From Candidatus Woesearchaeota archaeon (lineage in GTDB: Archaea; Nanobdellota; Nanobdellia; Woesearchaeales; GW2011-AR9): a DNA stretch of 64,000 bases. Location: contig JABHDY010000003.1 in assembly GCA_018676855.1 (NCBI GenBank), forward strand, positions 212,136 to 276,135, in the 5' to 3' direction. This document shows, in pieces, positions 11,264 to 14,836 of the stretch (positions are counted from its first letter, which is position 1; each line of letters starts with the position of its first letter). The notes below the pieces were generated by a model. The model was not told where the DNA came from and ran no database searches. It worked only from the letters and a program-made list of their open reading frames with translations. The translations under genes were made by a program, and so were the position numbers.

Positions 11264-14200
11264 GTGCAAGTGGAAGAAGACAAACAAGAACGTAAAAAAG
11301 AAGAACAGGACAGTAATGATGACATTCTAGAAGGATTTTCAACCGAACCAACAACTGAAGAACAGAAACCTACTGAAGAACCTAAAGAAGAACATTCTGA
11401 AGACACTCATGATTCTGAAGAAGAAAAAGAAAAAGAACCTGTTGAAGAACAACCGGAAGAAGAGCAACAAGATCAACCAGAAAAGAAAGACGTTCCTCAA
11501 GAAGTTGAAGAAAAAAAAGAAAAAGTTGTTGAAATTGACGAACCACACCATACAAAAAAAGAACGTGACGACATTTTTAGTGAAGAAGAAACCGAAAAGG
11601 ACGTTTCATTTAGTTTCGCTGATGTCAAACATAAAACAACATCATTCTTTAAAAATTTAAAATCAAAAGAAAAGTCAAAAAATAAATCAACAGAATCTCA
11701 CACAAAAAAGAAAGATGATTTTGCAATAGATACAAAAAAAGTTGTTGCATGGACACAAAAAAACAAGAAATGGTTAATTCCACTTGCGCTTATCCTTCTG
11801 ACCATATTCATTTCATCATATTTTAGAATGGCTCCAGCATATCTTCCGATTACAGATGATTGGGCAGAAAGTCAGGTTCACTCTTTTTATAGAAATCAAA
11901 TAACACAAAGTGTTAATCAACAATATCCAAACCTACCACAACAAAATAGGGATGCGTTGATTGAAAAAGAATTTCAATCATTATTGCAGAATAATAAAGA
12001 TCAAATAAAAGTGGATAAAGAACAAATGTCTGCACAATTTAAATCGCGATTACAAGACGAAAATGGTGACACATATTTACTCGCAATAGACCCATATTAC
12101 TGGTTTGCTGAAGCACGGAATTATGTAGAATATGGAGAGTTGGGAGATAGTTATAATGAGGAAGGAGAACGGATATTTAGTTTACGAAATGGAAGAGAAG
12201 GACGAGGAACAACAAACATTCCGTTTCATACAGTGTTTGGTGCATGGGTATACAAAATAACGAGCATTTTCAATAGAGACGTTTCACTAATGAGAGTTAT
12301 GTTTTTCATACCCGTTATTATTATTGGCTTATCGCTTATTCCCGCATTTCTTTTAGGAAGAAAAGTTGGTGGAAATGTAGGAGGATTTTTTGCCTCAACA
12401 ATTATAGCTATAAATGCTGCACTTTTAGGTAGAACGCCAGCAGGTTTTTCTGATACTGATGCATATAACATATTATTTCCATTATTCATTGTATGGCTAT
12501 TCTTTGAAGCTTTTGACGCAAAAACGATAAAGAAAAAGATTATGTTTGGTAGTCTTGCAGGTTTTATCAGTGGTTTGTATGCAGTAACATGGTTAGGATA
12601 CTGGTACATAGTTATGTTTATCGTTGCAACCATCATCGCATTTTTGACATATAACATTCTAAAAAACATACAAAATAAAGAAAAAAAACCATTATTCAAA
12701 AAAAATGTTAAAGATACAGTCATCGTTGGAGGAATTTATTTTATTACTTCAGCAATATTTGTTTCAATTTTTGCAGGATTCTCAAAGTTTAAGATACTAT
12801 TTACGGCACCGTTCAAAGCAACGGCAATAAAAGAAGTTGCAGTTGCAAAAATATGGCCAAATGTTCTTACAACAGTTGCAGAATTTAACGAAACGGATTT
12901 AAGTGGAATTATTGCGCAAATGGGTGGAAAATTATTATTTTGGATCGGACTCATAGGAATTGTTATATTATTGTTTAACACAAAAAAAGAAAAAATGAAA
13001 AATGTGTGGTACTTAATTGGATCGGGCGTATATTACGTTATCATACTTTCACTTAAAAGTTCGCTTAATAATCCGATAACGTTTATTATTCTAATAAGCA
13101 TTCCCGTACTTGTTGGCATTATGAAAGTGTTATACTTCAAAGAGAATAATACAAACATAAAGTATGCATTACTTCTTATCATTTGGATCGCGGGAACTGC
13201 ATATGGTTTCACAAAGGGAATGAGATTTTCAATCCTAATGGTCCCTGCATTTGCTATTGCATTTGGTATCACGATAGGAGTTTCATATAAAGCTGCAAGC
13301 GAATGGCTTTCAAAAGCTATCCATATTGATAAAACAATTTCAAAAGTTATTCTTATTATTGTGTTCTGTTTACTTTTAATAACACCATTAAACGATGCAA
13401 AAAATACGTCATTTAACGAAATACCAACAATGAACGACGCATGGTATGATAGCCTAACTAAAATTAAAGATAGTACACAAGAAGCAATTATAACGTCATG
13501 GTGGGACTTTGGTCATTGGTTCTATTCAATAAGTGGTCAACATGTTACGTTTGATGGTGCTGATCAGGGAGAAAGAATACATTGGGTTGGAAAGACGTTG
13601 CTTACGGATGATGAACAAGTTTCCGTGGGTTTATTACGTATGCTTAATTGTGGACAACAAAAACCTGTGCACGTTCTTGAAGAGTTCCTTAACGGAGATG
13701 CTGTTCGTGCAGTTGATATCATGAATGATATGATGGTTGTTAATGATAAGACAAAAGCTGTTAAAATTCTACAAGATGAGGGCCTTACTACTGCACAAAT
13801 TGCTGATATTATCGCAATAACATACTGTGATGATCTTCTTGACCAATTTTACATTACGTCAGAAGATATGGTTGGGAAAGGTGGTGTATGGGGCCATTTT
13901 GGTAGTTGGGATTTTGAAAAAGCTGCAATGTATCAAGCAGTAAAGCGTGACGAACAAAATGGAAAACAAACACTTATGGACAAGTTTGGTTTAACAAGCA
14001 GTGAAGCAGACCAGCAGTATTATGAAATAACTACCACAGGTGCAGACCAATGGGTTGCACCATGGCCAAGTTACCAGGGCCAGTTTGGATGCGACAATCT
14101 GGGAAACAAACTTGAATGCATTGTTGGTGTTGGTGGCGGAAATGCCCTTATAGAAATTGATAAAGGAACGCATGAAGCATTTATCCAAGGAAGTAACGGA

Positions 14201-14836
14201 CAAAAAATTTATCCAGACAGTATAGTGTATGCAACTGAAAATGATGGTATTGTTGAAAAAAAGTTTACTGGCGAATTAATGGGCTTATCCATCGTCCTTA
14301 TTGATGATAGTACAATCCTGTTAACTCATCCATTACAAGCAAACAGTATGTTTACAAAGTTATACTTTTTTGATGGTCACGGCTTAGAATGTTTTAGTAA
14401 GTTTGACGATCGTCAACAATTAACAGGTGCAAGAATAGCAACATGGAAAGTAGATTTTGACTGTCAGCAAAAAAATAATATTTTTGAACAGAAAGAAGTT
14501 GTAGAAGTAGTAGAACCAACAGTTCTAAACGATATTGAAGAAGTTCACGCAGCACACATATTAATTTCAACTGAAGGACGAAGTGAAGAGAAAGCACTTG
14601 TAGTAATCACAGAAATACGGAAATTGGTTGATGCAACTAACTTCCAAGAATTGGCAAAAGAAACGTCTGAAGATCCTGGAAGTGCAGTTAACGGTGGAGA
14701 TTTAGGGTGGTTTGGAAGAAACCGTATGGTCCCCGAATTTGAAACGACAGCATTTTCACTTAACCCAGGAGAGATTTCTGACCCAATACAAACAAAGTTT
14801 GGGTACCATTTAATTTACGTTATTGAAAATCGGTAA
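11264..14836 (+). CDS. aglB: STT3/AglB oligosaccharyltransferase with Glu/Lys-rich N-terminal tail and C-terminal parvulin (PpiC-type PPIase) domain
   Basis: Multi-TM protein with [32 protein letters not shown] and catalytic WWDFGHW; C-terminus [11 protein letters not shown]...[60 protein letters not shown] is a classic parvulin. Confidence 0.93.
   Translation: [1190 protein letters not shown]

What the first reader, a model, noticed from the sequence alone, without database searches (positions are those of the whole stretch)
11264..14836. Oligosaccharyltransferase AglB fused to a C-terminal parvulin prolyl isomerase
The STT3/AglB protein with WWDFGHW ends in a complete parvulin domain (HAAHILIS...[43 protein letters not shown]), predicted on the same extracytoplasmic side as the catalytic domain. 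Coupling glycan transfer to proline isomerisation of the acceptor would be a built-in folding/glycosylation machine. I do not recall a described OST-parvulin fusion.
Basis: partly seen in the sequence, partly recalled or inferred. Interest (0 to 1): 0.72.

Follow-up and report, generated by a model that had tools for sequence, protein, structure and literature searches.

The report
Glycan-attaching enzyme fused to folding enzyme
In one order of tiny archaea, the enzyme that attaches sugar chains to secreted proteins often carries a protein-folding enzyme (a prolyl isomerase) on its outer end, and three unrelated isomerase types were attached to the same spot, so sugar attachment and folding seem to have been joined in one machine more than once.

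Summary
The ORF at 11264-14836 (+, 1190 aa) is an STT3/AglB oligosaccharyltransferase with a complete parvulin at residues 1092-1190, on the same extracytoplasmic side as the WWDFGHW catalytic region. It is not an assembly error: the same fusion occurs in 27 of 353 genomes of the order (Woesearchaeota by record titles), in ten families; 26 were read on single contigs.

The main result goes beyond the finding. In the same order, FKBP is fused to the same end of AglB in about 40 genomes, cyclophilin in one, and a VKOR-type thioredoxin in one. Another AglB keeps only the first strand of a parvulin, a trace of loss. Three unrelated prolyl-isomerase folds at one end of one enzyme, with conserved active sites, argue that isomerase activity (or proline-peptide binding) is selected, not a chance fusion. 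The window's genome has one AglB and no other extracytoplasmic isomerase that I could find.

No such fusion was found in the literature searched or in NCBIfam. Best reading: a prolyl isomerase tethered to the OST, acting on acceptor chains as they pass. Catalytic activity and coupling to glycan transfer are inferred, not shown.

The parts
11264..14836 (+). aglB-parvulin fusion gene, 1190 aa, one open frame (start GTG at 11264 or 11270)
   Evidence: ORF list, Pfam STT3 + Rotamase
11264..11758 (+). long charged N-terminal tail (residues 1-165), predicted cytoplasmic, variable in length among fusions
   Evidence: alignment A1, charge and hydropathy
11765..13414 (+). membrane region of AglB (residues 168-717), with acidic residues D276 and D397/D399
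   Evidence: hydropathy, model, Foldseek to PglB/AglB, invariance
13499..13519 (+). WWDFGHW signature (residues 746-752)
   Evidence: sequence; WWDFG invariant in 18 of 18 fusions
13415..14485 (+). extracytoplasmic globular domain of AglB (residues 718-1074)
   Evidence: no hydrophobic segment after residue 717; model
14486..14533 (+). flexible linker (residues 1075-1090)
   Evidence: only segment with pLDDT under 50
14537..14833 (+). parvulin prolyl isomerase domain (residues 1092-1190); pocket H1098, D1146, M1155, F1159, F1179, H1182
   Evidence: Pfam PF00639, SurA/PrsA sequence matches, structure, residue conservation
14908..15972 (+). radical SAM/SPASM protein between aglB and the glycosyltransferase run (neighbour, role unknown)
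   Evidence: Pfam; directly after aglB in the same genus (L101), absent from this place in most relatives
16032..16685 (+). GT2 glycosyltransferase, the conserved neighbour of aglB
   Evidence: Pfam, best NCBIfam matches PpgS and AglJ, below cut-off, synteny
16667..17047 (+). DUF2304 protein, conserved neighbour
   Evidence: Pfam, synteny
17044..18195 (+). GT4 glycosyltransferase, conserved neighbour
   Evidence: Pfam, synteny

Best explanation
The gene encodes the cell's only detected AglB oligosaccharyltransferase, with a parvulin-type prolyl isomerase tethered by a short flexible linker to the end of its extracytoplasmic catalytic domain. Shown by sequence: the single frame, the domain order, the side of the membrane, the conserved pocket residues, and conservation across genera. 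Inferred: the isomerase is active and works on X-Pro bonds of secreted chains as they pass the OST, either keeping acceptor stretches open so that sequons can be glycosylated or speeding the folding of the freshly glycosylated chain. In this small genome it may also supply most or all extracytoplasmic prolyl isomerase activity. The other fusions to the same end (FKBP, cyclophilin, thioredoxin) are read as convergent answers to the same need: a folding enzyme held where chains are glycosylated.
For: STT3 and parvulin in one frame; 26 distinct fused proteins confirmed with profiles built here; ten families of the order. FKBP fusions: full-length matches over AglB tail plus FKBP in 40 genomes, sequences read and Pfam-confirmed for a sample. 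One cyclophilin fusion, 3e-48. One VKOR-type thioredoxin fusion. Vestigial parvulin on L111. Active sites: parvulin H, F, F, H in 18 of 18; FKBP Y26, D37, Y82, F99 in 24 of 24. FKBP fusions are not one clade on the AglB tree (p-AU 0.0002). Own genome: one STT3, one parvulin, two FKBPs without signal or membrane segment, no cyclophilin. Most free cyclophilins examined in the order have signal or lipoprotein N-termini and in the own family are rarer where AglB is fused, 7 of 18 against 25 of 30.
Against: No activity has been measured. The cyclophilin contrast is not corrected for relatedness and weakens to p about 0.05 when only genomes with a visible unfused AglB are compared (7 of 18 against 9 of 11) or when the whole order is compared (27 of 67 against 154 of 285). 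Many close relatives have AglB without any isomerase, so the domain is dispensable over evolution. The parvulin sits on a flexible linker, so no fixed geometry between the two sites can be claimed. The nearest eukaryotic parallel, FKBP11 at OST-A, is argued not to be a nascent-chain isomerase because its site is buried (PMC12804085).
Confidence: 0.55

Rival explanations
1. Anchor only: AglB is just a convenient abundant membrane protein at the secretion site. The isomerase is active as a general extracytoplasmic foldase but does not influence glycan transfer.
For: Flexible linker. Free extracytoplasmic isomerases in relatives are lipoproteins, that is, also merely tethered. Free cyclophilins are rarer in fused members of the own family. 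A thioredoxin fused at the same end suggests a general tethering place.
Against: The domain was attached to the OST more than once and with three isomerase folds; no survey of other membrane proteins was made, so it is not known whether isomerases are fused to AglB more than to others.
Confidence: 0.27
2. Substrate-binding module: the parvulin binds extended proline-containing chains and presents them to AglB, without needing catalysis, like the peptide groove of Ost3/Ost6 or the chaperone role of SurA.
For: Closest parvulins by sequence are in the chaperone SurA and the foldase PrsA. TUSC3 has a peptide-binding groove that affects glycosylation (PMC7563561). D1146 varies among fusions.
Against: Pocket His and Phe residues are invariant in 18 of 18, and FKBP pocket residues in 24 of 24; use of three different isomerase folds points to the shared activity, though all three also bind proline peptides.
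Confidence: 0.13
3. Chance fusion without function: a neighbouring isomerase gene was joined to aglB by deletion and is kept neutrally.
For: The domain is absent from many close relatives and one vestige shows that it can decay.
Against: Conserved pockets across genera with about 40% overall identity; recurrence with unrelated folds at the same place; no isomerase gene is seen next to aglB in the unfused loci examined, where GT2 follows aglB (neighbours compared only with window genes).
Confidence: 0.04
4. Artefact: chimeric contigs or a missed stop codon.
For: Most genomes are metagenome assemblies.
Against: Twenty-six distinct proteins in independent assemblies share the frame and the junction, including a single-contig genome, G046.
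Confidence: 0.01

Closest known systems
AglB / PglB / STT3 single-subunit oligosaccharyltransferases (PDB 7e9s, 3wak, 5gmy, 6gxc)
   Same: Fold of membrane region and globular domain (Foldseek 4.6e-19 to PglB, 9.5e-13 to AglB), WWDFG, conserved acidic residues, glycosyltransferase neighbourhood.
   Different: Has an extra C-terminal parvulin and a long charged N-terminal tail; from my own knowledge, neither is in the solved structures.
SurA (second parvulin domain) and PrsA extracytoplasmic parvulins
   Same: Closest by sequence (SurA 1e-22, PrsA1 9e-20) and by structure (TM-score 0.83 to PrsA and SurA domain fragments); extracytoplasmic foldases.
   Different: No SurA/PrsA N-region; here the domain is the tail of an OST.
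NmPin and other single-domain archaeal parvulins
   Same: Same fold; same pocket residues H, D, M, F, F, H (for NmPin, here).
   Different: About 90-110 aa and free-standing; the single-domain parvulins of this class form their own group in the domain tree (support 90/87).
Ost3/Ost6 (TUSC3/MAGT1) subunits of eukaryotic OST
   Same: A folding-related domain held at the OST on the lumenal side that affects sequon use (PMC7563561); AglB-thioredoxin on L176 is the direct parallel.
   Different: Separate subunits with a thioredoxin fold, not a prolyl isomerase in the catalytic chain.
FKBP11 at the OST-A secretory translocon
   Same: An FKBP-type prolyl isomerase placed beside OST (PMC12804085).
   Different: A separate membrane protein; its ligand site is buried by CCDC134 and the authors argue against nascent-chain isomerase activity.

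Membership tests
STT3/AglB oligosaccharyltransferase | STT3 domain match over curated cut-off | tested here: met
   PF02516, 116.4 bits against cut-off 24.5
STT3/AglB oligosaccharyltransferase | WWDxG signature and conserved acidic residues | tested here: met
   WWDFG, D276 and D397/D399 invariant in 18 of 18
STT3/AglB oligosaccharyltransferase | GT-C membrane fold plus extracytoplasmic globular domain | tested here: met
   AlphaFold model and Foldseek hits to PglB and AglB
STT3/AglB oligosaccharyltransferase | Short DK/MI-type motif of the globular domain | tested here: inconclusive
   [11 protein letters not shown] (D868, M869, K872, V875 invariant) is a candidate; not assigned by structure alignment
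STT3/AglB oligosaccharyltransferase | Transfer of glycan from lipid carrier to Asn | not testable with these tools
   needs biochemistry
Parvulin (PpiC-type) prolyl isomerase | Complete Rotamase domain over cut-off | tested here: met
   PF00639 positions 1-96 of 97, 86.3 bits against 21.7
Parvulin (PpiC-type) prolyl isomerase | Pocket residues His, Asp/Cys, Met, Phe, Phe, His | tested here: met
   all six present in the window protein; four invariant across 18 fusions; residue set from PMC8530231
Parvulin (PpiC-type) prolyl isomerase | Isomerase activity | not testable with these tools
   needs assay
SurA/PrsA foldase | SurA/PrsA N-region in front of the parvulin | tested here: not met
   the parvulin is preceded by AglB
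Ost3/Ost6 | Thioredoxin-fold subunit with CxxC | tested here: not met
   no thioredoxin in the window protein; seen only on L176 among the AglB chains examined

The most novel reading that the evidence does not exclude
In this archaeal order the C-terminal end of the oligosaccharyltransferase is a recurrent docking place for extracytoplasmic folding enzymes (parvulin, FKBP, cyclophilin, thioredoxin), and the attached prolyl isomerase sets which sequons are glycosylated, and when, by controlling proline isomerisation in the acceptor: a single-chain glycosylation-folding machine that evolved more than once. The genomic pattern is shown here; the control of site use is the unproven part, and the probability refers to it.
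Probability: 0.35. Interest if true: 0.9.

Novelty: new variant of a known kind. Interest (0 to 1): 0.76.

Why it matters
How N-glycosylation and folding compete for the same stretch of chain is an old question, studied mostly in eukaryotic OST complexes of many subunits. Here the two activities sit in one polypeptide, in natural variants with three isomerase folds, a thioredoxin, or nothing. That gives a ready set of constructs for testing whether a folding enzyme at the OST changes site occupancy. It also suggests that AglB is a hub of extracytoplasmic protein maturation in some genome-reduced archaea.

Tried and rejected
Assembly error or stop before the parvulin: rejected. Parvulin inside the cell: rejected by hydropathy and model. 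Bacterial contamination: rejected, since the parvulin follows AglB in one frame and archaeal-type glycosyltransferase genes follow. Single origin of all parvulin fusions: not settled (p-AU 0.068 on 100 columns). FKBP fusions as one clade: rejected (p-AU 0.0002). Fusions outside the order: among the listed matches of the phylum-wide sample no parvulin from outside the order is in such a long frame, and no FKBP fusion was seen in 103 genomes of a neighbouring order; other archaeal phyla were not searched. Cyclophilin complementarity: suggestive in the own family, not robust. A search for further thioredoxin fusions in 261 genomes found only the one already known.

Full report
1. What is there. 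The window ORF 11264-14836 (+) encodes 1190 aa. Pfam finds STT3 at residues 261-700 (3e-33) and a complete Rotamase domain at 1098-1187 (2.8e-24). The start is GTG at 11264 or the in-frame GTG at 11270. No NCBIfam model covers the fusion; only partial matches to PrsA, SurA and STT3 models appear, all below their cut-offs.

2. Topology and fold. Hydropathy averaged over 18 fusion proteins gives hydrophobic segments between residues 163 and 717 and none after, so the catalytic globular domain and the parvulin share a side of the membrane. An AlphaFold model of residues 150-1190 with 62 sequences has mean pLDDT 92.2 and pTM 0.84. Its only segment under pLDDT 50 is residues 1075-1090, the linker. 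Foldseek against PDB finds PglB (4.6e-19), AglB of Archaeoglobus (9.5e-13), and PrsA and SurA parvulin domains (TM-score to target 0.83). By sequence the parvulin is nearest to SurA (1e-22) and PrsA1 (9e-20), ahead of a free-standing archaeal-type parvulin entry (2m1i, 5e-17; NmPin 2m08, 7.5e-17).

3. It is conserved. In 60 relatives the parvulin lies in frames of 1021-1218 aa that also hold STT3 in many genera. Over 353 genomes of the order, fused proteins occur in 27 genomes of ten families. That number includes G034, where AglB and parvulin lie on two contigs, each cut at its end; it is an inference that they are one gene. Among the listed matches of the phylum-wide sample, none from outside the order is in such a long frame. 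In the window's own family every parvulin found is on AglB except in G006 (a 216-aa ORF in a 68%-complete genome). Twenty-six fused proteins were confirmed with profiles built here. Record titles mostly name the relatives Candidatus Woesearchaeota or Nanoarchaeota. The genes after aglB are commonly GT2, DUF2304 and GT4, whether or not the parvulin is present, so the domain was added or lost in place.

4. The wider pattern. Reading the tails of other AglB proteins and scanning them showed FKBP (L121, L171, L179; 4e-18, 2e-14, 4e-22), cyclophilin (L170 = G225; 3e-48; for the whole frame) and, on L176, a domain with CGHC that matches the VKOR-associated thioredoxin 3kp8 at 4.3e-11. A model of AglB tail plus FKBP matched over its full length in 40 of 353 genomes. 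Thirty of those loci were fetched and most of their tails were read; four were confirmed with Pfam (FKBP_C 4e-15 to 8e-22), besides the three above. The other ten rest on the match span alone. The FKBP fusion also models well (pLDDT 90.3, pTM 0.81). L111 keeps 'IRASHILITANNRTDADTKEEAI', the start of a parvulin, then low-complexity sequence and a stop, with a GT2-like gene directly after: a parvulin in decay. In total 68 of 353 genomes carry an AglB-prolyl isomerase fusion (tally). Output lists are capped, so this is best taken as a lower bound. No FKBP fusion was seen in 103 genomes of a neighbouring order.

5. How often it arose. On an AglB-core tree the parvulin label needs 13 changes, against 22.9 when shuffled (there G034 was counted as unfused). 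With all labels, isomerase-or-none needs 18 changes. Parvulin and FKBP fusions lie mostly in different parts of the tree, but L121 (FKBP) sits inside a supported clade whose other isomerase-bearing members carry parvulin. Holding all FKBP fusions together is rejected (p-AU 0.0002). These are quick trees, and direction (gain or loss) is not resolved. The parvulin-domain tree does not reject one origin (p-AU 0.068), but it has only 100 columns.

6. Are the isomerases competent? Parvulin pocket residues H1098, F1159, F1179 and H1182 are identical in 18 of 18 (M1155 16 of 18, D1146 11 of 18). FKBP residues equivalent to Y26, D37, Y82 and F99 are identical in 24 of 24. This is consistent with activity but does not show it.

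7. Cell context. The genome (944 kb, 92.8% complete) has one STT3 match, one parvulin, two FKBPs with no signal or membrane segment by eye and no cyclophilin. Most free cyclophilins examined in the order have hydrophobic N-termini, often with a lipobox-like Cys, hence extracytoplasmic. In the own family 7 of 18 fused genomes have one, against 25 of 30 unfused (Fisher p 0.0036). Restricting to genomes with a visible unfused AglB gives 7 of 18 against 9 of 11 (p 0.052), and the whole order gives 27 of 67 against 154 of 285 (p 0.057). The comparison was thought of after seeing the data and is not corrected for relatedness, so I treat it as a hint.

8. Mechanism. Shown: one chain, one side, conserved pockets, attachment of unrelated isomerases to the same end. 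Inferred: the isomerase works on secreted chains at the OST, either keeping acceptor stretches open or speeding folding after transfer. Three folds that have proline isomerisation in common make a chance fusion or a family-specific chaperone surface less likely. Whether glycan transfer is affected, or AglB merely serves as an anchor, cannot be told from sequence.

9. Compared with what is known. The nearest parallels are Ost3/Ost6 (thioredoxin subunits that influence sequon use; PMC7563561) and FKBP11 at OST-A (PMC12804085), both separate proteins; for FKBP11 the authors argue against nascent-chain isomerase activity. A survey of archaeal prolyl isomerases (PMC8530231) mentions neither DPANN nor oligosaccharyltransferases in its main text. 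Searches for OST or AglB with parvulin, prolyl isomerase or FKBP found no report of such a fusion in the titles and abstracts listed. The library holds open-licence papers only, so absence there is weak evidence.

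Noticed in passing
L121, L171, L179, L248-L277: AglB-FKBP fusions, about 40 genomes of the order, more frequent than the parvulin fusion.
   Followed up: yes
L170 3899-7246; L235 2074-5424 (-): AglB-cyclophilin fusion (PpiB-like, 3e-48), seen in one genome.
   Followed up: partly
L176 2154-5885: AglB with a low-complexity linker and a VKOR-type thioredoxin (CGHC) at the end, a single-chain parallel to Ost3/Ost6.
   Followed up: partly
L111 2650-2839: AglB with only the first part of a parvulin left, then low-complexity sequence and a stop: a decaying domain.
   Followed up: partly
window 11264-14836, residues C796, C855, C943, C952 (and C1043/C1067): Four cysteines invariant in the 62 AglB proteins aligned, and a further pair present in 15 of 18 fusions: likely extracytoplasmic disulfides, pairing not worked out.
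   Followed up: no
window 14908-15972: Radical SAM/SPASM gene between aglB and the GT2-DUF2304-GT4 run that follows aglB directly in most relatives.
   Followed up: no
G345:C138, G331:C1, G332:C7, G041:C7, G056:C70: Free-standing parvulins of the order (450-630 aa frames) have a VKOR-type thioredoxin match close by with the same frame length: apparently parvulin-thioredoxin foldases.
   Followed up: no
window 7301-10102 (-) and 10108-11232 (-): Two proteins (933 and 375 aa) with hydrophobic N-terminal segments and no Pfam match, divergent from aglB; found beside aglB only in the same genus among the loci compared.
   Followed up: no
G048:C1:107732-107989: VKOR-type thioredoxin match inside a 1432-aa open frame on another contig than aglB.
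   Followed up: no
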